DNA of 15,863 nt, from positions 1-15,863 of the forward strand of contig JAJZEJ010000791.1 in NCBI GenBank assembly GCA_021828635.1, given 5' to 3'. The stretch comes from Chloroflexota bacterium (GTDB lineage Bacteria; Chloroflexota; Ktedonobacteria; Ktedonobacterales; Ktedonobacteraceae). A program made the position numbers and the translations under genes. Within the stretch, counting starts at the first letter, position 1; every line of letters begins with the position of its first letter. The notes under the pieces are model-generated. The model was not told the origin of the DNA. It made no database searches and saw nothing but the letters and a program-made list of their open reading frames with translations. Of the stretch, positions 1,327 through 13,980 are shown piece by piece.

Positions 1327-3045
1327 TTACATGGATACAGGTTGCCAGGAAAAAGTTACCAGGGATTGGCTTTGGATGGCAATCCAGCGTGTACCAGCCT
1401 CAGCGTCATTGGTTGCTATGCCTGGTGTCGAAACAGCAGTGAGTTGACCACTCTGAGACTGACCACCAGCTCCAAAGAAAACATCCTGTGCCTGGGTTGC
1501 CAGAGCGATCAGCAAAGGCAGCGTTGAACGTTGGGCCAGTTGCGCATCATCCATGTGTACCAGGGGAAGGGCATCTTGTCGCACATTGGTGAGCCAGAAA
1601 CCGATCATATTCATGGCCGTGCGTAATTGTTCAGCTAGGCGTTGTTGAGCGGGACTCACCCCAACGGCCTCTCTAATGCCTTCCAGATGGATGTCGGTGT
1701 GCAAAATAAAGCCCGGTGGTGCTGTTTTCGATGAAAGGGTGAGTAGGCCAACACGGGCAAAAGGGTTTGACACGAGCAAAGGAGTGCCAGAAGGAACATC
1801 AGCAGTAATCATAGTGCTGCCATCTAAATAATCTAGAATGCGGATAAGGCTTTGGTGAATCATGCTCCAACGATGTGCTTGCCAGTCTGCTTGAAGAGCA
1901 GAGGCATTCAGTTCAACTTGCTGTGTATTGCGTGGCAACCAGTACATCAACCCTCCCTTCATACCTAGAGCAGTAAGAGCGGGATCCTCTGCCAGAAGAT
2001 GGCGCAGGTGATCGAGTAAGCTGTAGTGAAGTGGATCGCCGGGAGTGGGAAGAGTGCTGATACTTGCTTGGGCAATCCATGCCGACGAAGGTTGCTGCGG
2101 GGGAACAATTGTTCCCTCTTGCGTCACTAAAAAACGATTGTAGGCAACCAACAAATTGGCATGCTGCGGGGACAGAAAGAAGAGCGAGGCAGTGCCGAGG
2201 CGAACGTTGACGCTCTTCCTTGTAGCAGAGGATGTCCAGATCAACCAACCCAGCGGTACCCAAATCGTCTCGCTCTCGATGGAACCAGTGATCCAGGCAT
2301 AGTAGCCGGTACCGGGGGCCGGAGCGGGAATGTCCACGAGATGAATCATAACCTCATCATTCATACCCTGGACACCATTTTCGGAAGTGGACAGGTTACT
2401 GCTGAGAAGCGCAATGGTTCCTCCGATGCTATTGCTCACTGGTTTTGGATTCGTTGCAGTTGCGGAAGCAACCGAAGCAACCGAAGCAACCTGAGAGGCC
2501 AGCAAACCTACCATGCAACTAAGGAGTAAGGCAAAATGTAGCCATTGTGAAGGCAGCAGGTGTTGCCGAGAAGGTTGCCGAGATAATGGAAGAAGGGGGA
2601 GAGCAACAATCTCTTTTCTCTGGCTCACCTCTACATTGTTACTACGCTGAGGATCATTCTCCGCGTCTTTGGTTGAAGTTTCAATTGGTTGTTCAAGAAT
2701 TGAGACATGATTCAGACTTTCCTCTGGCTCTTGTGACACTTGTGCTACTGGCTCTTGTGACACTTGTGCTACGAGGCCAAAATCAGCCGTGGAGAACCCA
2801 AAGAGATCGCACAACTTACGCTGGTGATAGGGGCCAGGTGTAGCAATTCCCCGTTCCCAACGACTCACCGTTTGTGGTGTTGTGCTAATCAGGTCAGCAA
2901 CGTCTTGCTGTGTCCAGGAGTGGTTTAATCGCGCCTGCGTCAAGATCAAAGGAAACCGGCGCTGGTTCCGATTGCTTGTATGCCCGCGCACCGAGATGGA
3001 TGCGCGGGACTCTAACTCTGAGGTGTGAGCGTCGTGAGTGTGCAT
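1327..3045 (-). CDS. Membrane-anchored XRE-family helix-turn-helix protein with anti-sigma-K-like outer domain
   Basis: 572 aa. Residues 34-88 form an XRE/Cro-type helix-turn-helix (W-T-Q-Q-D-V-A-D-L-I, then T-P-Q-T-V-S-R-W-E-R-G). After it come a flexible linker with a perfect eight-residue duplication (V-A-Q-V-S-Q-E-P, residues 92-107), one transmembrane helix (about 167-190) and a roughly 370-residue extracytoplasmic part. Residues 234-330 read like the C-terminal domain of RskA-type anti-sigma factors: an early I-P-A-P-A-P, Y-Y-A-W-I, a V-P-L-G turn, then F-L-V-T-Q-E-G followed by P-P-Q-Q-P. That match is by pattern only. Residues 330-572 are unassigned. A likely role is transmembrane sensing that controls DNA binding, perhaps at the divergent control region upstream; this is inferred. 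The start at 3045 has AGGAG about six bases upstream. The lipoprotein gene follows downstream. Confidence 0.85.
   Translation of the reverse strand: MHTHDAHTSELESRASISVRGHTSNRNQRRFPLILTQARLNHSWTQQDVADLISTTPQTVSRWERGIATPGPYHQRKLCDLFGFSTADFGLVAQVSQEPVAQVSQEPEESLNHVSILEQPIETSTKDAENDPQRSNNVEVSQRKEIVALPLLPLSRQPSRQHLLPSQWLHFALLLSCMVGLLASQVASVASVASATATNPKPVSNSIGGTIALLSSNLSTSENGVQGMNDEVMIHLVDIPAPAPGTGYYAWITGSIESETIWVPLGWLIWTSSATRKSVNVRLGTASLFFLSPQHANLLVAYNRFLVTQEGTIVPPQQPSSAWIAQASISTLPTPGDPLHYSLLDHLRHLLAEDPALTALGMKGGLMYWLPRNTQQVELNASALQADWQAHRWSMIHQSLIRILDYLDGSTMITADVPSGTPLLVSNPFARVGLLTLSSKTAPPGFILHTDIHLEGIREAVGVSPAQQRLAEQLRTAMNMIGFWLTNVRQDALPLVHMDDAQLAQRSTLPLLIALATQAQDVFFGAGGQSQSGQLTAVSTPGIATNDAEAGTRWIAIQSQSLVTFSWQPVSM
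2465..2491. repeat. Three perfect 9-bp tandem units inside the XRE regulator
   Basis: GAAGCAACC is repeated three times without a mismatch. It encodes V-A-S repeats (Val-Ala-Ser-Val-Ala-Ser) at the outer end of the transmembrane helix, residues about 186-194. Unit number changes here would change helix length or its exit position without shifting the frame. Confidence 0.85.
2724..2771. repeat. Perfect 24-bp tandem duplication inside the XRE regulator
   Basis: Two back-to-back identical 24-bp units (2724-2747 and 2748-2771) encode the duplicated V-A-Q-V-S-Q-E-P in the linker just after the helix-turn-helix. The copies are identical at DNA level, so the duplication is recent or prone to slippage. 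It keeps the reading frame. Confidence 0.9.
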
Positions 3046-3338: not shown

Positions 3339-3510
3339 AAATGAGAAAAGGCAACGCTATACTCACATGGAAGATAGGAAATCTTTTGGAGAGAAATCAC
3401 TATGCAGGAAGATAGAACGCCATGAAATGTTTTTGTGGCACATAAAATAGATTGATTTCTTTTTGTTTACAGCCTGTCTTTTATGTTTTTAGTGAAAGGA
3501 GAAAACTTCG

Positions 3511-3606
3511 ATGTCTCACTACGACAACATGGTACAGCATCTTGTCTGGTCGCTACAACACTTGCTTCCGGTGGTGGTGGCAGCCGTACTGCATCTCTTC
3601 CACTAA
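3511..3606 (+). CDS. 31-aa mini-protein with N-terminus M-S-H-Y-D and a membrane helix
   Basis: A complete small gene: AAAGGAG at 3495-3501, then ATG at 3511 and stop TAA at 3604-3606. The product starts M-S-H-Y-D and has an amphipathic first half. A hydrophobic stretch (L-L-P-V-V-V-A-A-V-L, residues 18-27) follows, and the end is L-H-L-F-H. Five histidines in 31 residues are notable. A second gene at 5402-5509 encodes a 35-aa product with the same first five residues, the same Q-x-L-V spacing at residues 9-12, a hydrophobic second half and a C-terminal His. This conservation is the main evidence that both are real. The function is unknown: a small membrane-associated subunit, a signalling peptide or a peptide precursor are all possible. 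It is the first gene after the control region and is followed 23 nt later by a stem-loop, then by the hydrolase gene. Confidence 0.7.
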   Translation: MSHYDNMVQHLVWSLQHLLPVVVAAVLHLFH

Positions 3607-3629
3607 TGTGCCGTTGATAGCAGAGCCTT

Positions 3630-3665
3630 CCAGACGAAGGTATCTGTGAGAAAAACGTCGTCTGG
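3630..3665 (+). promoter_or_regulatory. Stem-loop between mini-protein 1 and the hydrolase gene
   Basis: CCAGACGA (3630-3637) and TCGTCTGG (3658-3665) form a perfect 8-bp stem with a 20-nt loop. It starts 24 nt after the mini-protein stop. No T-run follows, so it is not a standard intrinsic terminator. It may be a processing or stabilising hairpin, or an attenuator-like element that separates expression of the mini-protein from the hydrolase. Confidence 0.5.
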
Positions 3666-3765
3666 CAGAGGCAGCGACTAGAGCTTTTCCCTTCCATTAG
3701 AGCGCATTTTTGTTTCGATACCACCAAACTTGTTTATAGCAAAGCAACCATAGAAGGAGGTTCCT

Positions 3766-4671
3766 ATGCAAACAATTGAGCGTCGGGGTGAGGAAACCTG
3801 CCAGGGGCCAAAGGGCATCCCGCTTGCGTTCCATACATATGGTAATCGGACGAACGCCCCTGCGGTCATCCTTGTTCACGGCTGGATGCAAGCGGAACAG
3901 TGTTGGCGCAAACAACTCCTCACACTGTCCCAGCAGCACTACGTGGTGACGCTTGATCTCCCTGGTCATGGTTACAGTGGCGCTGTAACCCCAAATCAAG
4001 TCTCGCCTGATCTATGGGCGCACAGCGTGCGGGCCGTCTTAGAAGCACTGCGTCTGCATGATCGACCGGTGGTGCTGGTGGGATGGAGTTTTGGGGGGGC
4101 AGTAATCAATCTGTACATGCAACGCTACGGAATAGAGCAAGTCGCTGGAATTGTCACGTTCGGCACCACCATTGCGGCGATCACGATACAAGATCTGGGT
4201 GGCCCGCCTGTTGTAGAGGCGATGAAAATGAACGATGACCAGTATGATCCAGCAGTTCGCCTCGCTGCCTTTTATCAGTTTCAACAGTTGCTGACCTGGA
4301 ACCCTCCGTCACCCGACGAATACTACGAAACGTTGGGATATAACCGCATGGCACTTGATAATCTCTGGCATGTAAATATATCAGCAGTAATGCAGGCATT
4401 CGGTACAGGTGTTGCGCAAAAGGTCTATCAGGCAGGTATTCCTCTTTTGATCGTACAAGGAAAACACGACGCTATTACCCCCCTCGAAGTCGCGTTCGCG
4501 CTACAAAAGAAGGTTCCACATGCGGAATTGCTCGTACTGGAGTGCGGTCATTCAGCATTTTTAGAGGAACCAGAGATGGTGAATGCTGCCCTGTTACATT
4601 TTCTTGGTTCGCTCAAGGAACGCCCTTTTGGTAGACAATGTGGAGATATCTTGGTGAGAGGAGAAACCTGA
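3766..4671 (+). CDS. Alpha/beta-fold hydrolase
   Basis: 301 aa, the usual length for a single-domain alpha/beta hydrolase (esterase, lactonase or haloperoxidase-like group). Visible landmarks are the oxyanion H-G-W (38-40), D-L-P-G-H-G (64-69), the nucleophile elbow G-W-S-F-G-G with Ser108, the acid in G-K-H-D (Asp235), and the catalytic His262 in C-G-H-S-A-F followed by L-E-E-P. The catalytic triad is therefore intact. A cap region lies at about residues 140-215 and would set the substrate, which cannot be named from sequence. There is no signal peptide, so it is cytoplasmic. ATG 3766 is chosen because AAGGAGG lies seven bases upstream. Its stop TGA shares one base with the ATG of the next gene (TGATG), which suggests translational coupling to the unknown pair A1/B1. 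Confidence 0.93.
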   Translation: MQTIERRGEETCQGPKGIPLAFHTYGNRTNAPAVILVHGWMQAEQCWRKQLLTLSQQHYVVTLDLPGHGYSGAVTPNQVSPDLWAHSVRAVLEALRLHDRPVVLVGWSFGGAVINLYMQRYGIEQVAGIVTFGTTIAAITIQDLGGPPVVEAMKMNDDQYDPAVRLAAFYQFQQLLTWNPPSPDEYYETLGYNRMALDNLWHVNISAVMQAFGTGVAQKVYQAGIPLLIVQGKHDAITPLEVAFALQKKVPHAELLVLECGHSAFLEEPEMVNAALLHFLGSLKERPFGRQCGDILVRGET

Positions 4672-5021
4672 TGCTCACTGCCGATCCTGTGCTGTCATCT
4701 GAGAAACAACAACGGTTTAATAATCTCATTAGTCGAAACAAGCCGTTTTGCACTCACCAAATCTCCTATTTACCCTCCTACTGGCTGGCACGTGAAGTAC
4801 GCCGCAGAACGCTGATCGCGCTGGTCGCCACGCTGTCAGAGGAACCAGACGCATTTTGGCAAGACGTGGTGCGCTGGTATAATCTTCAGCCGCTCCAATG
4901 GTGGTTACGGCTGAAGGCGCATACACTTCCTGCACAGCAAATCGTCGAGCAGGAGGTTAGAGCGCAACGAGAACTCGCAGTCCGAGTGTGCCACCAGCGC
5001 GGCATTGAGGAGAAAAGCTAA
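4671..5021 (+). CDS. Unknown Trp-rich soluble protein A1 (paralogue of 11742-12083)
   Basis: 116 aa with no recognised family. The start at 4671 is preferred over an upstream in-frame ATG at 4638. It overlaps the hydrolase stop as TGATG, has GAGAGGAG upstream, and gives an N-terminus (M-L-x-x-D-P-V-L) that matches the paralogue at 11742. By-eye alignment shows about 64 identities over some 113 positions. The conserved core includes Y-L-P-S-Y-W-L-A, D-V-V-R-W, L-Q-P-x-x-W-W-L, L-P-A-x-Q-I-V and A-Q-R-E-L-A, and both end E-E-K-S. The sequence is mainly helical and has no signal peptide or transmembrane segment. In both copies it sits directly before the small membrane protein B, with overlapping or touching ORFs, so A and B probably act together. 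Confidence 0.8.
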   Translation: MLTADPVLSSEKQQRFNNLISRNKPFCTHQISYLPSYWLAREVRRRTLIALVATLSEEPDAFWQDVVRWYNLQPLQWWLRLKAHTLPAQQIVEQEVRAQRELAVRVCHQRGIEEKS

Positions 5022-5033
5022 TGGCGTTATAGT

Positions 5034-5381
5034 TTGCTGCAAGGTCGCCACGCATCTTTCAGTGGCCCGGTGGACGCAACCGCTCTGGTCTTTGTCGTCT
5101 TCCAAGTGATGAAACTGCGCTATCATCTGCCAGTGTGCTGGTGGCTGGTGGACAGAGCAGGTGGGGTGGGAATAGGACTGGTGGTGATTCTGAGCGTTGA
5201 CCCAATGCACCGCATCGGCTATCTTGCCATCCACGCCCAGGTGATCCTTTTGAGCATGCTCGCAATACTGCTTGTAGTGTTACTCCATCGTTTCCTTGCA
5301 GCCTATCGCGTGGTGCGTTTTTCTTCCACGTCTATTGGGCAAGAGGTGGCTGTTCCAGTTCAACTACACACCAAGTTCTAG
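5034..5381 (+). CDS. Damaged small membrane protein B1 (paralogue of 12084-12449)
   Basis: 115 aa if translation restarts at TTG 5034. The ancestral start is still visible: an ATG at 5021 (overlapping the TAA of A1 as TAATG) is followed by G-C-G as in the intact copy. One extra base near codon 3 then gives a stop at 5030-5032. TTG 5034 lies one base after this stop, so coupled re-initiation is conceivable, but it has no good ribosome binding site of its own. Relative to the intact copy, 30 bp coding ten residues (L-L-L-A-E-G-V-V-V-Y) are missing. This removes about half of transmembrane helix 1. Helix 2 and helix 3 remain, and G-P-V-D-A-T-A-L-V-F, the K-L-R-x-H-L-P-V loop and D-P-M-H are conserved. 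The C-terminal tail differs. It is probably decaying, or a two-helix variant. Confidence 0.6.
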   Translation: MLQGRHASFSGPVDATALVFVVFQVMKLRYHLPVCWWLVDRAGGVGIGLVVILSVDPMHRIGYLAIHAQVILLSMLAILLVVLLHRFLAAYRVVRFSSTSIGQEVAVPVQLHTKF

Positions 5382-5401
5382 GAAAAAGGAGGTGTATCAG
5401 C

Positions 5402-5509
5402 TTGTCACATTATGATGATGCTTTACAAAAGCTTGTGTCGCAGAGTTTCACAGTGCTTACTCATGTTGTATCATTTGTTGCTCTGTACATCCACATGTGG
5501 ATACACTAG
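5402..5509 (+). CDS. 35-aa mini-protein with TTG start, S-H-Y-D N-terminus and a membrane helix
   Basis: A complete small gene starting at TTG 5402, nine bases after a strong AAAGGAGGTG (5385-5394), with stop TAG at 5507-5509. Read with fMet at TTG, the product starts M-S-H-Y-D, exactly like the 31-aa product at 3511. The match fixes the unusual start codon. The rest has Q-K-L-V at residues 9-12 (Q-H-L-V in the other) and a hydrophobic helix (about residues 16-34). It ends I-H-M-W-I-H with a terminal His like the other. It is long enough to span the membrane once. It follows B1 by 20 bp, and a large palindrome starts 16 bp after its stop. The function is unknown. It is too short for routine gene callers and could easily be missed. 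Confidence 0.7.
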   Translation: MSHYDDALQKLVSQSFTVLTHVVSFVALYIHMWIH

Positions 5510-5524
5510 CTAGCTGAAGAGAAA

Positions 5525-5558
5525 AGAGATGGTAGGATTGTACAACCTTACCATCTCT
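5525..5558. promoter_or_regulatory. 34-bp near-perfect palindrome before the SIS isomerase-like gene
   Basis: The segment from AGAGATGGTA to TACCATCTCT, centred on TTGTACAA, is symmetric at 30 of 34 positions. As DNA it fits an operator. As RNA it folds into a stem of about 15 pairs (one G-U, one A-C mismatch) with a GUAC loop. It starts 16 bp after the stop of mini-protein 2 and ends 22 bp before the ATG at 5580. No T-run follows, so it is not a standard terminator. Confidence 0.6.
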
Positions 5559-5579: not shown

Positions 5580-7448
5580 ATGTTTGACTATCCAGAAAAT
5601 GCTGAGCTTGAGCAAGGGTGGTTTGCTCATATGGCAGTTAAGCATCTTCGCCAATTGCTCAACCACAATGGCCGTAGTGCCGACCTAAGCCGCGATGAGG
5701 AGGGAAGAACACAGCTATCCTGGGTGGACGTGGTGCAGCGATTAGTGGCACAGCCTGAATTACTCACACAGGTTGAGCAGGAAGCTTACGATTTATGGCA
5801 ACGTGGAATACGTCATATTATCTGGTCTGGGATGGGAGGGTCAATAACGACAGTAAAAACCCTGGTACAGATGGGTATTTGTGCAGGAGAAAATGGTCAA
5901 ACCATCCGTATTTATCCTTTGGATAGCACCGATCCGACGGCACTGAATACAACCGTTAAAGCTATTGCACGGGCAAAAGGAATGAGTATGCCGGAGCCAG
6001 GAGTGGGAATACGTAGCGCCTGGATACGGTGGCTTCTTGAAGACGTAATGCTCATTGGAGTGAGTATGAGTAAAATGTCTGAAGAACCTCTTTCACATCT
6101 TTTATGGTTTATTGAGCTACTTGACCAAGCGTATCTTGCTTTCAAAGATCATGTGTGTGTCATGACGCTGCAAGGATCGGTATTAGAACAGCTTGCCCAT
6201 GAATATCATCTCCCTATGTTGCCGCTCTTTCTTGACGATCAACCGCTTGTAGGACGTATGAGTGCGCCTGGCTCACGGATTTTCCTGTTGCCGGTGGCAC
6301 TCCACTTTGCCCACGCATCTGAGCGGGGACAACTTCTGACTATCTTACAGCAGGCATGGCAGTGGCACGATCTGGATGGAGCAGAGGCGCATTCAGAGAG
6401 CCATCCGTTCGTGCAAGTAGCCATCGCGCTCTTTCAGGCTAGCACCGATAGTATCTGTCGCCTGCTGCTAACGCTCCCCGACGACTGGCAACCATTTTTG
6501 CCCTGGATTGAGCAACTAATGGAACAATCGCTGGGCAAGGGTGGCAAAGGCGTGGTGGTGTTTCCCGATCAAGGACTCAATTCGTCAGCACCAGGATATC
6601 GAGCAGAACAGATGTTGCATGTCTCTGTTGTTTCGTCTTGGCAAGAGCAGAGCGGCCAGCACAATTTCCAACTGGTGCAGCCATATCTTGCTGATGGTGG
6701 GGAGGGCAATTCTCTCGCCCTCCTTGCGGCGCTAGTAGCCAGTTGCTTAGGCTGGCAAGTGACAATGGCCCTCTATGCATTGTTTGCCGATATCCGCTTT
6801 GCGACTGAGCCTGCAGTAGAATCCTATAAACGAATAGCACGCTCTTTGCGCGAGAGTTCCAGACTTTCTGTGCTAGAAAGTCTCAATACAGATGTATGGA
6901 GTAGTAAGGCAGAACCAGGGCATATGCAACTGGCTTGCCCGCCAGATGTTCAGAACCGACAACAGATTGCTCATGAGACACCCTCGGTACTCTTTGCGCA
7001 AGCATTGTCTGCTCATACACGGGTGCATACTATGCTCTATCTTGATTTCACTGTCAATGGAGACCTTCCATCAGAGGTCTGTCAAATGCTCAGACGGTGC
7101 CTATACCATCTTGGAAATACGGTGCTTGGCGTTCCGGTGAAAGTGCGCCGCGCCCCGTCGGCATACCACATCTCGGAACAAAGTGAACTCGATGGTCCCC
7201 CACTCGTCAGTCTACGAGTCCTCTTACGCGATCAGCCAGCTCCGCTTCTTGGTACCTATCGCACGAGATTTTTGCATGCGCAAGCCGTAGCAACTTGGCG
7301 TGCGATGGTGGAGCAAGAACGCTCGTGCTTCTTTTTATTGGTTGATACTGGCAGCGCGGGAGCAGCCCTGGAATCCTTTTTTCGAGGGGTAGAAGAACAC
7401 ATGAGTTTGATAGAAACAGCAACTATCGGGAAAGGAGCGAGCGTATGA
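5580..7448 (+). CDS. Glucose-6-phosphate isomerase-like SIS-domain protein
   Basis: 622 aa from ATG 5580. An in-frame ATG at 5529 would add 17 residues, but it lies inside the palindrome and is less likely. Residues 60-170 look like the first SIS domain of the isomerase part of transaldolase/glucose-6-phosphate-isomerase fusion proteins: I-I-W-S-G-M-G-G-S (80-88) and L-D-S-T-D-P (114-119). The second half has Q-P-Y-L-A-D-G-G-E-G-N and E-P-A-V-E-S-Y-K-R, resembling the Q-P-x-V-E-x-x-K end motif with its catalytic Lys. No transaldolase domain precedes it. The phosphate loop, normally S-K-S-G-T-T/G-T-x-E, reads S-K-M-S-E-E-P (about 163-169), so isomerase activity is uncertain. The true substrate may be another sugar phosphate, or the role may be regulatory. 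Its stop overlaps the start of the oxidase gene by 4 bp (ATGA). Confidence 0.75.
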   Translation: MFDYPENAELEQGWFAHMAVKHLRQLLNHNGRSADLSRDEEGRTQLSWVDVVQRLVAQPELLTQVEQEAYDLWQRGIRHIIWSGMGGSITTVKTLVQMGICAGENGQTIRIYPLDSTDPTALNTTVKAIARAKGMSMPEPGVGIRSAWIRWLLEDVMLIGVSMSKMSEEPLSHLLWFIELLDQAYLAFKDHVCVMTLQGSVLEQLAHEYHLPMLPLFLDDQPLVGRMSAPGSRIFLLPVALHFAHASERGQLLTILQQAWQWHDLDGAEAHSESHPFVQVAIALFQASTDSICRLLLTLPDDWQPFLPWIEQLMEQSLGKGGKGVVVFPDQGLNSSAPGYRAEQMLHVSVVSSWQEQSGQHNFQLVQPYLADGGEGNSLALLAALVASCLGWQVTMALYALFADIRFATEPAVESYKRIARSLRESSRLSVLESLNTDVWSSKAEPGHMQLACPPDVQNRQQIAHETPSVLFAQALSAHTRVHTMLYLDFTVNGDLPSEVCQMLRRCLYHLGNTVLGVPVKVRRAPSAYHISEQSELDGPPLVSLRVLLRDQPAPLLGTYRTRFLHAQAVATWRAMVEQERSCFFLLVDTGSAGAALESFFRGVEEHMSLIETATIGKGASV

Positions 7449-8485
7449 GTGAGCAGGCGAACCTTCTCAATCTGCACGATTACGAAGAGGTAGCACGTGA
7501 CCGTCTTTCTCATACCTTTTACGATTACTACGCGGGTGGAAGTGGCAACGAACAAACACTCTATGACAATCACACAGCCTTTGGGCGCATTCGCCTGCGA
7601 CCGCGTGTGCTGGTGGATGTGAGCCACATAGCGATGCAGACAACGGTGCTAGGGACACCCATCAGCATGCCAGTGTTAATTGCCCCCACAGCCTATGCGG
7701 GTCTAGCTCATCCTGATGCAGAGTGTGGTATTGTGCGGGCCGCAGGAGAACTTGAGACGCTTTCTGTCCTCAGTATCAACGCCAGCCAAACGTTGGAGGA
7801 GATTGCCGATGCGGCTCCTGCTTCCAAACTGCTGTGGCAACAAGTGTATCTCTATGACCATGATTTTACCAGTGCCTTGCTCACACGCATCGAGGATGCG
7901 GGCTACCGCGCCATTGTATTGACGGTAGATCGTCCGCGTTTGGCAAAGCGTGAGCGCGACGAGCGGAATGGCTTTCGTTTGCCGACAGGCATGCAAGCAG
8001 CAAACTTTGTTGGCAGCGCCATCACGCCGCGTACAGGTGACTGTATAAACACGTGGAACGATATTGCCTGGCTTCGGTCGAAAACTTCCCTGCCTCTTGT
8101 GCTGAAAGGAATCCTTCGTGGCGAGGATGCGTGGCAAGCCGTCGAGCATGGGGTCAACGGCATCATCGTGTCTAATCATGGCGGACGGCAATTAGATGGT
8201 GCAATGGCGACGATAGAGGCGCTACCAGAAGTCGTCGCGGCGGTGGCTGGACGCTGTGAAGTGTATCTGGATGGCGGCATTCGACGCGGCACCGATGTCC
8301 TCAAAGCTCTGGCACTGGGAGCGCGAGCCGTCCTGGTCGGACGCCCCATCCTCTGGGGGTTGGCCGTGGGTGGCCGCACAGGGGTCCGTGACGTGCTGGA
8401 TACGTTGCGTGCTGAACTTGACCTGGCGATGGCATTGTCCGGGTGCGCGTCGTTGGAGCAGCTTCCTCGTGATCTGCTGGTTTGA
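7445..8485 (+). CDS. FMN-dependent alpha-hydroxy-acid oxidase (lactate oxidase/dehydrogenase-like)
   Basis: 346 aa, a typical length for the family. It oxidises 2-hydroxyacids such as lactate or glycolate to 2-oxoacids, with FMN as cofactor. Visible motifs: Y-Y-A-G-G-S-G-N-E (28-36, substrate Tyr), I-A-P-T-A-Y (79-84), W-Q-Q-V-Y (131-135, active-site Tyr135), V-D-R-P-R-L-A-K-R-E-R-D (161-172), L-K-G-I-L with FMN-binding Lys221, the catalytic S-N-H-G-G-R-Q-L-D (His245, Arg248), D-G-G-I-R-R-G-T-D (276-284), and G-R-P-x-L-W-G (299-305). All key residues are present. Next to a lactate permease, lactate is the most likely substrate. Mandelate- or glycolate-type activity cannot be excluded. Whether electrons go to oxygen or a quinone is not readable. 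ATG 7445 overlaps the upstream stop and follows GGAGCGAG. Confidence 0.93.
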   Translation: MSEQANLLNLHDYEEVARDRLSHTFYDYYAGGSGNEQTLYDNHTAFGRIRLRPRVLVDVSHIAMQTTVLGTPISMPVLIAPTAYAGLAHPDAECGIVRAAGELETLSVLSINASQTLEEIADAAPASKLLWQQVYLYDHDFTSALLTRIEDAGYRAIVLTVDRPRLAKRERDERNGFRLPTGMQAANFVGSAITPRTGDCINTWNDIAWLRSKTSLPLVLKGILRGEDAWQAVEHGVNGIIVSNHGGRQLDGAMATIEALPEVVAAVAGRCEVYLDGGIRRGTDVLKALALGARAVLVGRPILWGLAVGGRTGVRDVLDTLRAELDLAMALSGCASLEQLPRDLLV

Positions 8486-8520
8486 ATGGCTCAGTTTGTA
8501 AGCAGAAAGGATGGTTTTCT

Positions 8521-8979
8521 ATGTCTCAATCGACCTCTCCCTCTTCGGTTGCCTCTTCGCATGGCACCTCTGGGTGTGTCGGCTTGCATCATGCCACGCT
8601 CGAATACCCGCTGGGCGAAGATCAACAGGCATGCAGCGACTACGAACAGCAGGCACGCTCTTTTTACGGCACGCTCCTTCGTCTGGAAGAGATTGAGATT
8701 CCCTCGGTGTTTCGAGCGATGGACCATGATACCGATGGCCTCTGGTTCTCCTTTGCCGACGGCGGTGGCTATCAGCAGCTGCATCTTGGCCCGGTGAAGA
8801 ACTTCCAGGCCAAACCACGTGGCCACATTGCGGTGTACGTCCACCATCTTGAAGAGATGCTGACGATGGTGCAGGCAGCAAACGTGGTGATCCAGGAAGC
8901 CATCCAGGAGCCAGGATGGACACGCTGCTACATCTATGATCCTTTCGGCAACAAACTGGAACTCCGTGAGCAAGGGTAG
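8521..8979 (+). CDS. VOC-superfamily (glyoxalase/dioxygenase-like) protein
   Basis: 152 aa from ATG 8521, which has AAAGGA nine bases upstream; earlier in-frame or overlapping starts lack one. It shows a single vicinal-oxygen-chelate domain built from two beta-alpha-beta-beta-beta modules. Landmarks are L-H-H-A-T-L (22-27, first metal ligand His), A-R-S-F-Y-G-T-L-L (45-53), L-H-L-G (87-90), G-H-I-A-V-Y-V (101-107, second-module His102) and Y-D-P-F-G-N-K-L-E-L (139-148, ligand Glu148). The first 20 residues are Ser-rich and probably disordered. Family members are metal-dependent lyases, isomerases, dioxygenases or resistance proteins, so the exact reaction is open. A role on a reactive 2-oxo product made by the neighbouring oxidase would fit. 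It starts 35 bp after the oxidase and stops 24 bp before the permease. Confidence 0.85.
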   Translation: MSQSTSPSSVASSHGTSGCVGLHHATLEYPLGEDQQACSDYEQQARSFYGTLLRLEEIEIPSVFRAMDHDTDGLWFSFADGGGYQQLHLGPVKNFQAKPRGHIAVYVHHLEEMLTMVQAANVVIQEAIQEPGWTRCYIYDPFGNKLELREQG

Positions 8980-9003
8980 ACGGAGAGAAGAGAGGCAGAA
9001 GCG

Positions 9004-10581
9004 ATGCTCACGATGATGGCGTGTGTCCCGTTCTTGCTCGTGCTGCTCTGTTTTGTCGCTGGCTGGAAAAGCTGGCAGACGGGCCTGCTGACGCTGCTGA
9101 CAACGGCGTTCATCGCCGTGGCGCTTTTCCATCTCTCAGCACGGCACCTGGAAGGGACGCTGCTTGCGGCGCTCTTTCCGGCGCTGACGGCCACGCTCAT
9201 TCTCTTTCCCGCCCGCCTGCTCTACGTGCTGGAAGAAACGGCAGGCATGACCCAGCGGGTCTCTCAAGCGATACGAGGAGCAGATCGACCATTGGTGGTC
9301 CTGTTTCTGGTGTTGTGCCTCTCACCACTGCTGGAGGCCAGTTGTGGCTTTGGCACCGGCATGGTGGTCTCGATTCCGCTCTACCTGACACTTGGCATTG
9401 CGCCACAAAATGCGGCACTCCTGGGCCTGCTGGGCGAATCCACCACCGCGTATGCCTCGATGGGCAACGCAGTGAGCCTGGAAGCGTCCATGACAGGGCT
9501 TGCAAGCTCCCCTCTCGGCATGGATACCGCTCTCTTGTTGCTCCCCTGCTCGCTGTTATGCGGTTGCGTGGCATTGCTGCTCGTGGGCGGGACGCGCACC
9601 TTACGGCAGTGGTGGCCGGTGGCGCTCCTGGCGGCGGGAACCCTCGTTGGCGGCGAATGGCTTGTCAGCCGTCTGGATGTGAGCCTGGCGGGCGTGCTTT
9701 CCAGCCTGTCAGCGGGCAGCGTCCTCGGATGCGTGCTGTGGTGGCAGCGCATGCACCGTCTGCACCGTACCCAGGCCACACGTCTGCTCACACCTTCCAT
9801 GCCCCTTTCCTGGCAGCAGTGGTCTCTGCTGCTTGTGCCAGGGGTGCTTGTCCTCGTGGAACCGCTGCTCATGCACCTGGGTTCCTTCCATGCCCTGGTG
9901 GCGCTCCTCGTCATTGGCGAGGGGACGCAACGCCTGCTCGTAATGCGGTATCCTGGCACCTGGCTTCTGCTTGCCTGTCTGAGTGTGCTGTTGCTCAGGC
10001 AAGGTCAAGCAGTCCCTCTGGGAGCCATCCTCCAACAGACGAGCAGACGGTTTTTCCCCCTGGCCATCACCATCGTGACCTTTGTCCTGGCATCGGCGCT
10101 CTTGTCCGTCGCAGGGATGCTGGATGCGTTTACCACTATCTTCGATCCCTTTGCACAGGTGTATCTGAACGTCGCGCCTGTGCTTGGCATGCTGGGAGGC
10201 TGGATGTCTGGGTCCAATGCCTCCTCCAATGCGCTCTTTGCTCCGATGCAAGTGAGCATGGCTTCCCAGGGGACGGTGCTGTGGGTGGGAGCGGCGCAAA
10301 ACGCGGCATCGTCGCTTGGTCGGATGCTTGCTCCAGCCTACCTGGTGGTGGCCGCCAGTGCCGCCAGGACACGCGAACAGGTAGTGGCTCCGGCGATTCT
10401 CTGGCTGACGGTGGTGGCCTTGCTGGCTATGGAAACCATCCTCGCCCTGGTCTTTGCCTCCTTATGGGTGGTGCTAGGGATAGAAAGCCTGACCCTGCTC
10501 GCGCTCTACGGACTGCACGGCTACCTAGCAAGGTGGCAACCGTCTACGAAGAGGCTGTGGGCGCAGTCTCTGGGTGACTAA
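9004..10581 (+). CDS. lldP: L-lactate permease family transporter
   Basis: 525 aa, hydrophobic throughout, with about twelve or more membrane helices, close to the family's usual 530-550 aa. Diagnostic stretches of the LctP/LldP/GlcA family are present: L-L-E-A-S-C-G-F-G-T-G (109-119), N-A-A-L-L-G-L-L-G-E-S-T (136-147), G-S-N-A-S-S-N-A-L-F (about 403-412, the family's G-S-D/N-x-S-S-N-x-L-F) and A-Q-N-A-A-S-S-L-G-R near the end. It would import lactate or glycolate with protons through the cytoplasmic membrane, feeding the 2-hydroxyacid oxidase two genes upstream. Substrate choice within 2-hydroxyacids is not decided by sequence. ATG 9004 follows AGAGAGGCAG. The coding frame is GC-rich, which produces a 518-codon open shadow frame on the same strand. 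Confidence 0.92.
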   Translation: MLTMMACVPFLLVLLCFVAGWKSWQTGLLTLLTTAFIAVALFHLSARHLEGTLLAALFPALTATLILFPARLLYVLEETAGMTQRVSQAIRGADRPLVVLFLVLCLSPLLEASCGFGTGMVVSIPLYLTLGIAPQNAALLGLLGESTTAYASMGNAVSLEASMTGLASSPLGMDTALLLLPCSLLCGCVALLLVGGTRTLRQWWPVALLAAGTLVGGEWLVSRLDVSLAGVLSSLSAGSVLGCVLWWQRMHRLHRTQATRLLTPSMPLSWQQWSLLLVPGVLVLVEPLLMHLGSFHALVALLVIGEGTQRLLVMRYPGTWLLLACLSVLLLRQGQAVPLGAILQQTSRRFFPLAITIVTFVLASALLSVAGMLDAFTTIFDPFAQVYLNVAPVLGMLGGWMSGSNASSNALFAPMQVSMASQGTVLWVGAAQNAASSLGRMLAPAYLVVAASAARTREQVVAPAILWLTVVALLAMETILALVFASLWVVLGIESLTLLALYGLHGYLARWQPSTKRLWAQSLGD

Positions 10582-10605
10582 AACGAACGAAAGGAACGAA
10601 GAAGG

Positions 10606-11748
10606 ATGCCAACTTTTGGAATCATTGGGGCTGGTGCGGGTGTCTTTCGTCATCATCGGGAGGCGCTTGTGCAGCTGCCAGGACAGATCGTGGCGCTCGC
10701 TGACATCAAGGCAGAACCGGCAGAGCAGCGTGCGCATGAACTTGGATGCGCCTTCTACCAGGACTACCATCAGATGCTGCGTGAGGGCCGACCCGATGTG
10801 GCCGTCATTCTCACCCCTCCCTTCTTGCATGCAGAGATGGCGGGTGCGTGTTTGCGAGCAGGCTGCCATGTACTGGTGGAGAAACCAATGGCATTGCACG
10901 TCGGGGAGGCCGATTCCATGATCGCAGAGGCCCACCGCGCAGAGCGTGTGCTGCGTGTCGTTTTTCAGCATCGGTTCGATTCCGCCATCCGCAAAGCAAA
11001 AGCCTTGATGGACGGTGGATGCTTGGGCCAACTTCAGCATGTGACTCTGCACGCCTTCTGGCCTCGGCCTGCACGCTACTATCAAGAGGTGCCGTGGCGG
11101 GCCACCTGGCGCGGCGAAGGTGGTGGCGTGTTGATGAATCAGGCTCCCCACGACCTTGATCTGCTCTGTTCACTCTTCGGTATGCCTGTACGAGTGCATG
11201 GCTGGACACACTGCCTGCTGCATGACATCGCAACAGAAGATACTGCGCAGGCGATGCTCGCCTGGCCAAACGGATTGCTTGGGACCGTGTTCGTCAGTAC
11301 CGCAGTGGCTGGCCAGAGCCGGATTGACATCGTGGGGACGGCTGGTTCGCTTTGCCTTGCTGGCTCTGCGAGTCAGACCGCAACAACCTACGCTCCCCTC
11401 ACTATCGAGATGCGAGAGTTCGTCGCCAGCACGATTTCTCAGCCCTTGCCCATACTACACCCAGTCACCCTCACCGAGGTGGCGAGGGAAGGAAAGCATC
11501 TCGATGTCTATCGCAGCCTGGTACAAGCCATTGAACAAGGACAGGGAGGGCCGCTGGCAGCCGGTGAGCAAGCTCGCATGTCCCTGGAACTCGCCAATGC
11601 GCTCTTGCTCTCGGCCCAGACCCACGCAACAGTGGCATTGCCTGTTGACCGAGAGCGGTATGCGCAGATGCTCCAAAAGCTTCAAAAGCTTCAACGGCAA
11701 GCAGAGGAGATGCTGGCGTCTCCGGCGAGAGGAGGAGATCGATGCTAA
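10606..11748 (+). CDS. Gfo/Idh/MocA-family NAD(P)-dependent oxidoreductase
   Basis: 380 aa. Residues 1-120 form a Rossmann fold, with the dinucleotide loop G-I-I-G-A-G-A-G (5-12), then L-A-D (31-33), I-L-T-P-P-F-L-H (68-75) and the catalytic V-E-K-P-M-A-L (91-97, Lys93). The second domain carries G-G-G-V-L-M-N-Q-A-P-H-D-L-D (172-185); the usual Asp of this motif is Asn178, while His182 and Asp183 are kept. The family oxidises or reduces sugars, inositols and related polyols, and the precise substrate is not readable. The C-terminus has a Q-K-L-Q-K-L-Q coiled stretch from a 9-bp tandem repeat (11674-11691). The start has AAAGG at 10590-10594. It follows the permease by 24 bp and overlaps A2 by 7 bp, so it belongs to the same operon. 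Confidence 0.92.
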   Translation: MPTFGIIGAGAGVFRHHREALVQLPGQIVALADIKAEPAEQRAHELGCAFYQDYHQMLREGRPDVAVILTPPFLHAEMAGACLRAGCHVLVEKPMALHVGEADSMIAEAHRAERVLRVVFQHRFDSAIRKAKALMDGGCLGQLQHVTLHAFWPRPARYYQEVPWRATWRGEGGGVLMNQAPHDLDLLCSLFGMPVRVHGWTHCLLHDIATEDTAQAMLAWPNGLLGTVFVSTAVAGQSRIDIVGTAGSLCLAGSASQTATTYAPLTIEMREFVASTISQPLPILHPVTLTEVAREGKHLDVYRSLVQAIEQGQGGPLAAGEQARMSLELANALLLSAQTHATVALPVDRERYAQMLQKLQKLQRQAEEMLASPARGGDRC

Positions 11749-12083
11749 AGACTGATCCTGTGCTGACGGTGGCACAGCACCAACGCTTTGAAGCTCTCAT
11801 CCGTCAGATCAAGCCGCTTTCAACAGACCAGCTCCCCTATCTGCCGTCCTACTGGCTGGCCTGCGCGGCACGCCGCACGGCGCTGATCTCGTTGGTCGCC
11901 GCACTGCCAGACGAGTCAGAGGTGTGGTGGGAAGATGTGGTGCGCTGGTGCCATCTCCAGCCAGCGCCGTGGTGGCTGTGGGCCAAAGCGCAACGCCTTC
12001 CGGCTCATCAAATTGTGCTACACGAAATCAGCGCACAGCGAGAACTTGCGACACAGGTGCGCTTTGTTGAGGAGAAAAGCTGA
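11742..12083 (+). CDS. Unknown Trp-rich soluble protein A2 (paralogue of 4671-5021)
   Basis: 113 aa with no recognised family. The ATG overlaps the end of the oxidoreductase gene by seven bases, with GAGAGGAGGAG as ribosome binding site inside that gene. Conserved with A1 are Y-L-P-S-Y-W-L-A (35-42), D-V-V-R-W (66-70), L-Q-P-x-x-W-W-L, L-P-A-H-Q-I-V, A-Q-R-E-L-A and the E-E-K-S end. Compared with A1 it lacks four residues near the C-terminus. It has no signal peptide or membrane segment. The strict A-B order in both places, with B starting directly after the A stop here, suggests a two-component unit: a soluble partner plus a membrane protein. The preceding gene differs in each case (hydrolase versus oxidoreductase), as does the following one. 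Confidence 0.82.
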   Translation: MLKTDPVLTVAQHQRFEALIRQIKPLSTDQLPYLPSYWLACAARRTALISLVAALPDESEVWWEDVVRWCHLQPAPWWLWAKAQRLPAHQIVLHEISAQRELATQVRFVEEKS

Positions 12084-12449
12084 ATGGCGTATGGACTCTT
12101 GCAAGGCCATCACGTGTCTCTGCGTGGTCCGGTTGACGCGACGGCCCTGGTCTTTGCCGTCTTCCTGCTGCTAGCAGAGGGTGTTGTCGTGTACCAACTG
12201 GTCAAGCTGCGTTCCCATCTGCCCGTGCGCTGGCGGCTGGTAGGAGCAGCGAGCGGCGTGGGATTGCTGATGGTCCTGATCCTCTTCCTTGATCCCATGC
12301 ACGGCATGAGGTATATCTCCCCCTATGTTCAGGTCATCTTCTGGGGGATGCTAGCAAGCACGCTTGTGGTGGCCTCGCTGGCATGGATGCTCTCGACGGC
12401 CATCTGCCAGGATCGCGTTGCCCGCCAGAAAAAACACGCTCAAAATTAA
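12084..12449 (+). CDS. Small three-helix membrane protein B2 (paralogue of 5034-5381)
   Basis: 121 aa with no recognised family. ATG 12084 follows the TGA of A2 directly, with GAGGAG in the end of A2. Three hydrophobic helices lie at about residues 19-40, 52-70 and 82-103. The Arg/Lys-rich loop K-L-R-S-H-L-P-V-R-W-R between helices 1 and 2, and the basic C-terminal tail (R-V-A-R-Q-K-K-H), put both inside the cell, with the N-terminus outside. D-P-M-H at the outer end of helix 2 and G-P-V-D-A-T-A-L-V-F before and within helix 1 are conserved with B1 and are candidates for the functional core. Unlike B1, the frame and helix 1 are intact, so this is the working copy. It precedes the decarboxylase by 30 bp. 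Confidence 0.82.
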   Translation: MAYGLLQGHHVSLRGPVDATALVFAVFLLLAEGVVVYQLVKLRSHLPVRWRLVGAASGVGLLMVLILFLDPMHGMRYISPYVQVIFWGMLASTLVVASLAWMLSTAICQDRVARQKKHAQN

Positions 12450-12479: not shown

Positions 12480-13980
12480 ATGCAACAGGTGATCCCGTCT
12501 CAGGAAGCGGAGCGTTCAGAAGCAAGCGTCTCGTTGGTGCAAGCACAGCCCTTGCTTTCCTTTGAAGAGAGTATGCAGCAGTGTGTGCAGTGGATCACGC
12601 ATTGCTCTCAGCAGGAACCCACTGGATCGATCTATCCTCAGTTCGTGCCTGGGACGGTTGCACAGCGTTTGCCGATGGCTCCCCCACAGCAGTCAGAACC
12701 GCTTGAGCGTGTGGTCACCGACGCAGTGGCCTTGATGGAAACGATCTCGCAGTGGAATGCCCCCCGGTTTTCATGGCTACTTCCAGGTGCATGTCCCACC
12801 CGCCATGTTCATTGCCTCCTTGCTACAGGTGATGGTGAATACGAATCTCATGTCCTACGCCAGTAGCCCGGCGGCCACCGAACAAACGACCGTCGTGCTT
12901 GCGTGGCTCCGTCAACTCCTCGGACTGCCAGCTTCCTTCTTTGGTGTGCTCAATGCGACCGCCGATGAAGGAGCCTTGACGGCCTTTGTGACGGCCCGCG
13001 ACCAGGCTCTCCACGCCGATGGTCTCCAAGCAACCTCCGACTCCTCGCGCTTGCGCTGGTACGCCTCACCACACGTACATTCCTCTCTCCCCAAGGCCGC
13101 TCGCATTGCTGGTCTTGGTGAGCCGTGCTTCCATGCCGTGGCGGCTGATGCGTCCTATCGTCTTGATGTGGCGGCACTGGAACGAGCCATTGCAGCCGAT
13201 CTCTCGCGTGGCTTGCTCCCTTTCGCGGTAACTGCCACCGTGGGAACCACGTCCACGCTGAGCATCGATCCTATCGCCGACATCGCTGACGTTTGCCAAC
13301 GCTACGGTCTCTGGCTCCATGTCGATGCAGCCTACGCTGGCGCAGCGGCGATCAGCCCACCGTATCGGTGGGTGCTAGACGGATGCGACCAGGCCGATTC
13401 GTTCGTCATGAACCCCCATAAATGGCTTGGCCTGCCGCTTGGATGTAGCGTGTTCTATACCCAACAACGTGAGGCGGTGCGCCGTTCACTCAGCGAGCAT
13501 CCTGAGTATTTGCGTGATACGAGTCCCTTAACGGGGGCAGGGCATAGCTTCCCTGATTACATGGACTATAGCATCAATCTGACCCAACCCTGGCGCGGCT
13601 TGCTGCTCTGGATGCAATTGCGTCTCATGGGCCAGCAGGGCATCGCGTCAATGATCGAGCGGCACTGTACCCTGGCGGAGACCTTCGCTTCCTGGGTGCG
13701 TGCTGATCCCGACTTTGAGCTAGGCGTTGATCCTGTCTCGCTCAACCTGGTCTGTCTACGGGCCTGCCCTCGTGGACTTGATGGCTCCCAGCTCAATGCG
13801 TTCAATGAGCAGTTGCTCAACCGGATCAACAGCACCGGTCAGCACTTTCTCACCCATACGGTGCTTGATGGCAAGGTGGTGTTGCGAGTCTCCCTCGGTG
13901 GCACATCCGATGAACAGGTTGCACGCTCTCTGTGGCAGGTGCTGCGGCAGCAGAGACGGCTGTGTCGCTTGGAGGACTGA
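12480..13980 (+). pseudogene. PLP-dependent (group II) amino-acid decarboxylase interrupted by a frameshift
   Basis: Two overlapping frames encode one protein: N-terminal frame from ATG 12480 (AAAGGAG at 12464-12470), C-terminal frame ending TGA 13980. They join near 12760-12771, at a run of six C followed by GG and TTTT. Skipping one base there gives about 499 aa, the family's usual length, reading W-N-A-P-R-F then H-G-Y-F. Features: S-P-A-A-T-E (substrate-binding region), S-P-H-V-H-S-S (PLP-stacking His), A-T-V-G-T-T-S-T-L, H-V-D-A-A-Y-A-G-A (PLP-binding Asp), and N-P-H-K-W-L with the Schiff-base Lys at codon 13420-13422. Such enzymes make amines from aromatic amino acids or glutamate; the pattern fits the aromatic-type branch. 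All catalytic residues lie after the break. The break may be a real mutation, a homopolymer sequencing error, or less likely programmed frameshifting. Confidence 0.85.

What the first reader, a model, noticed from the sequence alone, without database searches (positions are those of the whole stretch)
3511..5558. Two related mini-proteins (M-S-H-Y-D), each followed by a stem-loop and then an enzyme gene
The 31-aa ORF at 3511-3606 and the 35-aa ORF at 5402-5509 share the first five residues, the Q-x-L-V spacing at 9-12, a hydrophobic second half and a terminal His. Both have strong ribosome binding sites at nine bases. The second uses TTG, which only the similarity reveals. Each stop is followed within 16-24 nt by a strong inverted repeat (3630-3665; 5525-5558) and then by an enzyme gene (hydrolase; SIS isomerase-like). 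The repeated mini-protein/hairpin/enzyme layout suggests a functional module. Options are small membrane subunits or regulators, signalling peptides, or peptide precursors. I know of no named family with this signature.
Basis: partly seen in the sequence, partly recalled or inferred. Interest (0 to 1): 0.8.

Follow-up and report, generated by a model that had tools for sequence, protein, structure and literature searches.

The report
Five-codon genes beginning Met-Ser-His-Tyr-Asp
The two tiny genes in this stretch belong to an unrecognised family of very short bacterial genes, some only five codons long, whose first five amino acids stay almost unchanged among related bacteria while the DNA around them drifts.

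Summary
Both mini-ORFs are real (31 aa, 3511-3606; 35 aa, TTG start, 5402-5509). They belong to a family of ultra-small genes that I found in 26 of 47 Ktedonobacteria genomes and nowhere convincing in 353 other Chloroflexota. Only the first five residues, M-S-H-[YF]-D, are conserved. Tails vary or are absent; the shortest members are complete five-codon genes (codon 5 left free: 24 of 24 Asp). Third codon positions are near-random while positions 1-2 are 94% identical, so selection acts on the peptide. Searches not using the motif recovered it beside a ~53-aa membrane ORF near a STAND-TPR regulator and after one sigma gene (15 of 15). Tyr/Phe agrees between the two sites in 17 of 17 genomes, suggesting a common reader. 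Terminators follow 23 of 53 copies (2.3 expected), but neither window copy. The 'peptide/hairpin/enzyme' module is only partly supported: one hydrolase relative shares it, the SIS relatives do not. Function is unproven; I favour a trans-acting N-terminal peptide (0.42) over a ribosome-acting leader (0.3). Leaderless communication peptides and MsrDL are the nearest precedents; it is a member of neither.

The parts
3494..3501 (+). Shine-Dalgarno GAAAGGAG of mini-ORF 1, 9 nt before ATG
   Evidence: sequence read; GAAAGGA is common in the family
3511..3606 (+). mini-ORF 1, 31 aa, MSHYDN + hydrophobic tail
   Evidence: family membership by its MSHYD start
3630..3665 (+). inverted repeat after mini-ORF 1 (arms 3630-3637/3658-3665, 20-nt loop); weak fold, no U tract; a CCAGATGCA/TGCATCTGG repeat sits at about the same distance before the hydrolase in L145
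3766..4671 (+). alpha/beta hydrolase downstream of mini-ORF 1
   Evidence: Pfam Abhydrolase_1 6.9e-22; the better of two class homologues also follows a MSHYD ORF
5386..5392 (+). Shine-Dalgarno AAGGAGG of mini-ORF 2, 9 nt before TTG
   Evidence: sequence read
5402..5509 (+). mini-ORF 2, 35 aa, TTG start, (M)SHYDD + hydrophobic tail
   Evidence: TTG/GTG starts also in the sigma-linked members
5525..5558 (+). 17-nt inverted repeat (88% complementary) after mini-ORF 2; no U tract, so attenuator-like hairpin or operator
5580..7448 (+). SIS/glucose-6-phosphate-isomerase-like protein downstream of mini-ORF 2 (the mechanical ORF start 5529 lies in the hairpin; 5580 has a GA-rich stretch before it)
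1327..3045 (-). HTH_3 regulator with a hydrophobic segment, divergent from mini-ORF 1
   Evidence: Pfam HTH_3 1.8e-09; hydrophobic segment read by eye

Best explanation
SHOWN BY SEQUENCE: the two ORFs belong to a Ktedonobacteria family of ultra-small genes selected for the peptide (f)Met-Ser-His-[Tyr/Phe]-Asp at the N terminus. The shortest are complete five-codon genes; others, such as these two, carry variable tails. INFERRED: the product acts in trans. After removal of the initiator Met (expected with Ser at position 2; recalled rule), the exposed N-terminal word Ser-His-[Tyr/Phe]-Asp is read by a partner common to each cell, most likely a tetratricopeptide (STAND/BTAD-type) regulator such as the one upstream of many copies. 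It would tie that regulator, the linked sigma factor or local operons to how strongly the parent transcript is translated. In the window the word would sit on two membrane-anchored tails, in an operon that starts divergently from an HTH regulator. My odds: translated, selected peptide family about 0.93; trans action through an N-terminal reader 0.42; a TPR/STAND reader in particular about 0.25.
For: Peptide-level selection in 47 class genomes: codon 5 free, 24 of 24 GAY, control 0; codon 3 free, 32 of 35 CAY, control 8; codon 4 free, 25 TAY + 9 TTY of 48, control 6; permutations of H/Y/D, 25 of 38 in the order HYD, control 4. In 25 copies near membrane ORFs, positions 1-2 of codons 2-5 are 94% identical, third positions 44%, flanks 26-29% except 44% over the SD. 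Searches not using the motif: membrane-ORF profile and sigma C-terminus (15 of 15; 3 more among 26 loci). STAND homology upstream in 18 of 25 modules. Trans reading: Tyr/Phe agrees at both sites in 17 of 17 genomes, although the two sites use different starts and Ser codons. Stand-alone MSHYDD genes lie between opposite-strand genes in four loci, and many copies are followed by a terminator. Restriction: 25 of 26 strict hits in 400 Chloroflexota genomes fall in the 47 class members.
Against: No experiment shows translation or binding. No member was found in 21 of the 47 class genomes, all of 5.7 Mb or less. In 7 of 25 modules no STAND homology was found upstream (some contigs end early), and the sigma-linked and stand-alone copies are not next to a TPR gene in the loci listed. 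The 17-of-17 Tyr/Phe agreement may rest on one event at the base of the Dictyobacter-type clade, and in eight genomes the two sites lie within roughly 6-35 kb. Tails of up to 30 residues, some hydrophobic, are awkward for a free ligand. A conserved rather than diversified sequence is unlike a pheromone.
Confidence: 0.42

Rival explanations
1. Ribosome-acting leader: the nascent chain fMSH[YF]D, still attached to tRNA in the exit tunnel, slows or arrests the ribosome (alone or with a small molecule). The arrested ribosome changes hairpin or terminator formation, mRNA stability or coupling of neighbouring genes, as MsrDL does.
For: Only the first five residues are shared across contexts and a stop or various residues can follow, as expected if the ribosome reads the chain at that length. 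The layout gene - RBS - tiny ORF - intrinsic terminator parallels MsrDL (PMC10314930, passages). Strict terminators follow 23 of 53 copies against 2.3 expected. The window and L145 place the ORF and an inverted repeat before a hydrolase.
Against: No consistent gene lies downstream; in several loci the next gene is on the other strand. The residue after Asp5 is not fixed. A ribosome stalled on the ORF would hardly reach hairpins that start 40-82 nt beyond the stop in several copies. Class restriction and the concerted Tyr/Phe change need a special explanation for a universal machine.
Confidence: 0.3
2. Ribosome-protecting minigene: abundant translation of the short peptide clears a bound inhibitor from the ribosome, as described for macrolide-resistance pentapeptides.
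For: Complete five-codon genes with a good SD. Pentapeptides conferring erythromycin resistance are mentioned in PMC10314930 (one passage); the rest is recalled.
Against: Long-tailed and TTG/GTG-start members do not fit; no resistance gene was noticed beside the copies, though I did not search for one.
Confidence: 0.08
3. Codon or tRNA sensing: His, Tyr, Asp (and Asn) codons are those read by queuosine tRNAs (recalled), so the leader senses tRNA modification.
For: Codons 3-5 are all NAY in the Tyr form; Asp or Asn often follows.
Against: The order is fixed: HYD 25 of 38, 26 other combinations sharing 13. Phe, not a queuosine codon, replaces Tyr in two groups of genomes.
Confidence: 0.04
4. Small membrane protein pair: the two window peptides are short membrane subunits or regulators of the neighbouring enzymes, and the shared MSHYD is a by-product of duplication.
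For: Hydrophobic tails in both window ORFs and in L145; a small membrane ORF accompanies many MSH[YF]D genes.
Against: Elsewhere the tail is mostly absent or acidic; conservation is confined to MSHYD; no enzyme is consistently adjacent.
Confidence: 0.08

Closest known systems
Leaderless communication peptides (SIP/RopB, LCP class), PMC10518010 (passages seen)
   Same: Ultra-small ORF encoding a mature peptide with no secretion leader, linked to a TPR-type regulator
   Different: LCPs are mostly 8-10 aa, hydrophobic, with codes that differ between species and RopB-clan receptors; here the sequence is polar, five residues, nearly invariant over 26 of 47 genomes, with BTAD-STAND or sigma neighbours
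MsrDL leader hexapeptide MYLIFM, PMC10314930 (passages seen)
   Same: Tiny ORF shortly after an upstream stop codon, amino-acid-level constraint, intrinsic terminator behind it
   Different: MsrDL controls one downstream gene in cis and stalls at its stop codon with macrolides; here no consistent downstream gene, and members with tails
cat-86/cat-112 leader pentapeptides (recalled; the one search found no paper)
   Same: As recalled, function lies in the first five residues, ending in an acidic residue, with a free tail
   Different: Drug-inducible leaders of one resistance gene; different sequence; stalling untested here
RRNPP receptor-propeptide systems (titles and abstracts listed only)
   Same: TPR regulator gene near a small secreted-looking precursor (the membrane ORF with C-terminal YPH motifs)
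   Different: Here the regulator is BTAD-AAA-TPR, and the MSH[YF]D gene is an extra piece

Membership tests
Leaderless communication peptides (LCP) | ultra-small ORF without secretion or processing sequences | tested here: met
   MSH[YF]D-stop in 23 of 47 class genomes; definition from passages of PMC10518010
Leaderless communication peptides (LCP) | highly hydrophobic, mostly 8-10 aa, sequence differing between species | tested here: not met
   polar pentapeptide, identical but for Tyr/Phe in 25 copies
Leaderless communication peptides (LCP) | adjacent RopB-clan receptor | tested here: not met
   neighbour is BTAD-AAA-TPR (homology in 18 of 25 modules) or a sigma factor
Ribosome-arrest leader (MsrDL/cat type) | amino-acid-level conservation of a tiny translated ORF | tested here: met
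   translation itself inferred
Ribosome-arrest leader (MsrDL/cat type) | attenuating hairpin or terminator directly after the ORF | tested here: inconclusive
   23 of 53 strict terminators against 2.3 expected, starting 4-82 nt after the stop; neither window hairpin qualifies
Ribosome-arrest leader (MsrDL/cat type) | a regulated gene downstream in cis | tested here: not met
   next genes differ and in several loci lie on the opposite strand; possible exceptions are the window and L145 hydrolases
Ribosome-arrest leader (MsrDL/cat type) | ribosome stalling at the peptide | not testable with these tools
   needs toeprinting or Ribo-seq
RRNPP receptor-propeptide pair | TPR receptor next to exported precursor with C-terminal mature peptide | tested here: inconclusive
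   BTAD-STAND-TPR plus membrane ORF, some ending in YPH-like repeats; export not tested
Known Rfam RNA element | match to a curated covariance model | tested here: not met
   0 matches up to E 1 in the window; in six MSHYD loci 9 matches up to E 1, all far below their gathering scores

The most novel reading that the evidence does not exclude
A five-codon gene is conserved by amino-acid sequence across much of a bacterial class, among the smallest conserved protein-coding genes I know of. Its product Ser-His-[Tyr/Phe]-Asp is a general intracellular peptide word, carried bare or on variable tails, that one trans-acting reader in each cell recognises to link sigma factors, STAND regulators and metabolic operons.
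Probability: 0.33. Interest if true: 0.94.

Novelty: categorically new. Interest (0 to 1): 0.86.

Why it matters
Gene finders normally discard ORFs this short, so a conserved 18-bp gene stays invisible to annotation. That one keeps its amino acids while its third codon positions randomise shows that five residues can be a unit of selection. It gives a concrete, testable case of peptide-level signalling or ribosome control in a little-studied lineage, and a way to find such genes: position-free codon scans plus neighbour-anchored checks. If a common reader exists, it would be a new regulatory principle linking sigma factors and STAND regulators. If it proves to be a ribosome-acting leader, it would be a new variant of a known kind instead.

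Tried and rejected
Enzyme-module reading: 0 of 79 SIS-homologue loci (L001-L079, 23-47% identity) contain a start + SH[YF]D (an earlier scan of 90 loci found only the window), so the SIS link is not conserved in them. Queuosine-codon sensing: rejected by fixed order and Tyr-to-Phe. C-terminal extension of the sigma factor by frameshift: the spacing from the sigma stop is 2-29 nt in the 15 genes (18 and 128 nt in two, and one start overlapping the stop), in all frames. Rfam element: none. Plasmids: no match to mini-ORF 2. Profile of the two window peptides in 16 genomes: 21 places in 8 genomes, best E 0.82, read as chance. SIS profile in viral contigs: none. DNA pattern in viral contigs: 33 stretches; 3 encode MSH[YF]D-stop (L246, L247, and L262, which lacks a hairpin and may be chance), 5 encode 7-21 aa and 25 start longer or open frames, a useful negative control. 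Sigma homologues: of 26 loci examined, 3 have the ORF and 23 lack it within 400 nt (9 more distant relatives of the same sigma at 50-55% identity, the rest other sigma genes); the places that received no locus or were not given to the script were not examined. Membrane-ORF profile: 42 places, 25 at E <= 1e-3. Of these 25, 11 are the seeds; G049 is a false hit inside a 424-aa frame; G036 is cut by the contig end after Met-Ser-His; 10 have MSH[YF]D-stop downstream (7 of them new to the Tyr-motif search); and 2 (G040:C4) lie in an array of four such ORFs with MSHYD-stop inside it, upstream of both hits (which corrected my first reading). Of 17 weaker places I examined 3 (all followed by MSHFD-stop) and left 14. 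The looser pattern gave 51 places; I did not translate those whose second residue is not Ser except where they fell in fetched regions, and the script printed only frames up to 80 aa. In one search only 50 candidates were scored in genomes with more.
Full report
OBSERVATION. The two ORFs, their shared start and their ribosome-binding sites are as described. The second hairpin is clear, the first weak, and neither is an intrinsic terminator. The contig is Ktedonobacteria-like: the nine best SIS relatives in the genome collection are Ktedonobacterales at 44-47% identity (protein database). No genome is held for the window.

A FAMILY, NOT A PAIR. A degenerate pattern for SD + Met-Ser-His-Tyr-Asp in 47 Ktedonobacteria genomes gave 6 places against 1 in the reversed control, and all 6 read MSHYD-stop. 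A looser pattern (residue 2 free) gave 51 places in 23 of 47 genomes against 28 in its control. Translating the regions I fetched showed mini-ORFs of 5 to 21 aa with the same start: MSHYD-stop, MSHYDD-stop, LSHYDDGE-stop (TTG start), MSHYDEDHHHTRKELIA-stop, MSHYDAVIFILRFLFGRTL-stop and others (frames up to 80 aa printed). A few GTG-start cases (L133, L140, L154) may be chance. Across 400 Chloroflexota genomes the strict pattern gave 26 places in 16 genomes and 0 in the control; 25 lie in 15 of the 47 class genomes. The one elsewhere (1 of 353 genomes) is the start of a 184-aa frame. Counting all forms found in any call, 26 of 47 class genomes have at least one member; in the other 21, all of 5.7 Mb or less, I found none.

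SELECTION ON THE PEPTIDE. Those searches used the motif, so each position was then freed in turn (47 genomes). Codon 4: 25 TAY and 9 TTY of 48 places, 14 for all other codons, control 6. Codon 3: 32 of 35 CAY, control 8. Codon 5 with a stop next: 24 of 24 GAY, in 23 genomes, control 0. Permuting H/Y/D codons: HYD 25 of 38, the other 26 combinations sharing 13, control 4. In 25 copies near membrane ORFs, positions 1-2 of codons 2-5 are 94% identical (the only change is Tyr/Phe), third positions 44%, flanks 26-29% except 44% over the 15 nt holding the SD; 15 read MSHYD and 10 MSHFD (this script itself required ATG TCN CAY T[AT]Y GAY stop, so it measures synonymous freedom, not recall).

TESTS NOT USING THE MOTIF. 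(1) Most MSHYD-stop genes first found follow a ~53-aa membrane ORF. A profile of 11 such ORFs (seeds from MSHYD loci, hence circular for those 11) found 14 further places at E <= 1e-3. One is false and one is cut by a contig end. Ten have MSH[YF]D-stop downstream, 7 of them new to the Tyr-motif search. The last two (G040:C4) lie in an array of four membrane ORFs with YPH-like repeats in which MSHYD-stop comes after the first ORF, upstream of both hits. Three weaker matches examined are followed by MSHFD-stop; 14 weaker ones were not examined. (2) One sigma-70-family gene ends ..QDFLG-stop. Searching only for that end gave 15 genes in 15 genomes; 15 of 15 have, 2-29 nt on, a TTG or GTG mini-ORF (M)SH[YF]DD... 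Three more orthologues have it, one with ATGA overlap (read by eye, checked); the other 23 of 26 loci examined, more distant or other sigma genes, do not.

TYR/PHE AGREEMENT. In all 17 genomes where I could read both sites, the two agree: Phe in five (G005 and G009 are Dictyobacter; G033-G035 unnamed), Tyr in twelve. The sites use different start and Ser codons, which argues against gene conversion. This may be one evolutionary event, and in eight genomes the sites lie within roughly 6-35 kb (coordinates). In a further group (G043-G048) the membrane-linked copy has Phe and the sigma relatives lack the ORF.

CONTEXTS. (A) Homology to a BTAD-AAA-TPR (STAND) regulator upstream in 18 of 25 modules tested, then membrane ORF, then MSH[YF]D-stop; some membrane ORFs repeat a C-terminal YPH-like motif and look like exported precursors (inference). 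(B) Sigma-linked, above. (C) L145: a MSHYD ORF, an inverted repeat CCAGATGCA/TGCATCTGG, then an alpha/beta hydrolase 33% identical to the window's. It is the better of two class homologues of the window hydrolase at E <= 1e-25 (6.8e-41); the other (7.3e-32) has no such ORF in the DNA held. (D) Stand-alone MSHYDD-stop genes between opposite-strand genes in four loci listed (L136, L137, L138, L157); G004 and G041 carry the same gene. (E) Others: before a tricorn-like protease (L134) and in tandem (L158). Two viral contigs carry MSHYD-stop with SD and hairpin, one again behind a 30-aa membrane ORF. Strict terminators follow in 11 of 26 membrane-linked (one of them viral), 9 of 15 sigma-linked, 3 of 10 other and 0 of 2 window copies, against 0.60, 1.00, 0.47 and 0.20 expected from shuffles.

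MECHANISM. Shown by sequence: a selected N-terminal pentapeptide, hence very probably translated. Inferred: what reads it. Terminal and stand-alone positions, the lack of a consistent downstream gene, class restriction and Tyr/Phe agreement favour a product acting in trans. Invariant Ser2 should allow Met removal (recalled rule), exposing SH[YF]D. Conservation confined to the first residues equally suits a nascent chain read by the ribosome, the main rival. In the window the two copies carry membrane tails and stand before enzyme genes, so here a leader role is plausible too. The checks changed one description (G040:C4) but not my odds.

KNOWN SYSTEMS. LCPs show that a 24-bp ORF can encode a signal for a TPR-family regulator (PMC10518010, passages); sequence character and receptor differ. 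MsrDL shows a six-codon ORF behind an upstream stop and before a terminator acting by stalling (PMC10314930, passages). N-terminal MSKIK affects elongation (PMC10192921, abstract, start of the introduction and outline). In the held open-access library, 'MSHYD' gave 33 papers, of which the 20 listed look unrelated by title; Ktedonobacter with leader peptide gave 5, none on this by title and abstract start; MVKTD gave 0 and mccA with heptapeptide and smallest gene gave 0; leader/minigene/RRNPP searches gave 5, 1 and 9; a broader micropeptide search showed nothing relevant in the 15 listed of 1,098. PMC6497799 (genome features of Ktedonobacteria) has 0 occurrences of SARP, sigma factor, quorum, small peptide or BTAD. 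Subscription papers and preprints are not covered.

Noticed in passing
window 4671-5381 and 11742-12449: A two-gene unit of unknown function is duplicated within the operon: 116/113 aa (56% identical) and 115/121 aa hydrophobic proteins (53% over 92 aligned positions). No Pfam match to the first copy. In the first copy the second gene's ATG runs into a stop (ATG GCG TTA TAG) and ten internal residues are missing.
   Followed up: partly
window 12480-13980: The PLP decarboxylase region reads in two overlapping frames (12480-12866 and 12757-13980), so a frameshift or an assembly error is possible.
   Followed up: no
window 7445-11748: FMN-dependent dehydrogenase (best NCBIfam names MftD and L-lactate dehydrogenase/oxidase, all below cut-offs), glyoxalase-family protein, lactate-permease-like transporter and Gfo/Idh oxidoreductase follow the SIS gene, suggesting a hydroxy-acid or sugar-acid pathway operon.
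   Followed up: no
L196 (G040:C4:51158-52349, minus strand) and L195 (G033:C2): Arrays of membrane ORFs with repeated YPH-like motifs (four in G040:C4, two in G033:C2), like multi-copy pheromone precursors, with a MSH[YF]D-stop gene inside or after the array; possibly a peptide-signalling system in Ktedonobacteria.
   Followed up: partly
L246 and L247 (IMG/VR contigs): MSHYD-stop minigenes with SD and hairpin on viral contigs; L246 has a 30-aa membrane ORF just upstream and a LuxR-like HTH frame before that.
   Followed up: partly
G004, G041, G042: AAGGACTTTTT(C/T)GATGTC(A/G)CATCATGAC, an SD + Met-Ser-His-His-Asp start in three genomes: a variant of the family or an ordinary gene start.
   Followed up: no
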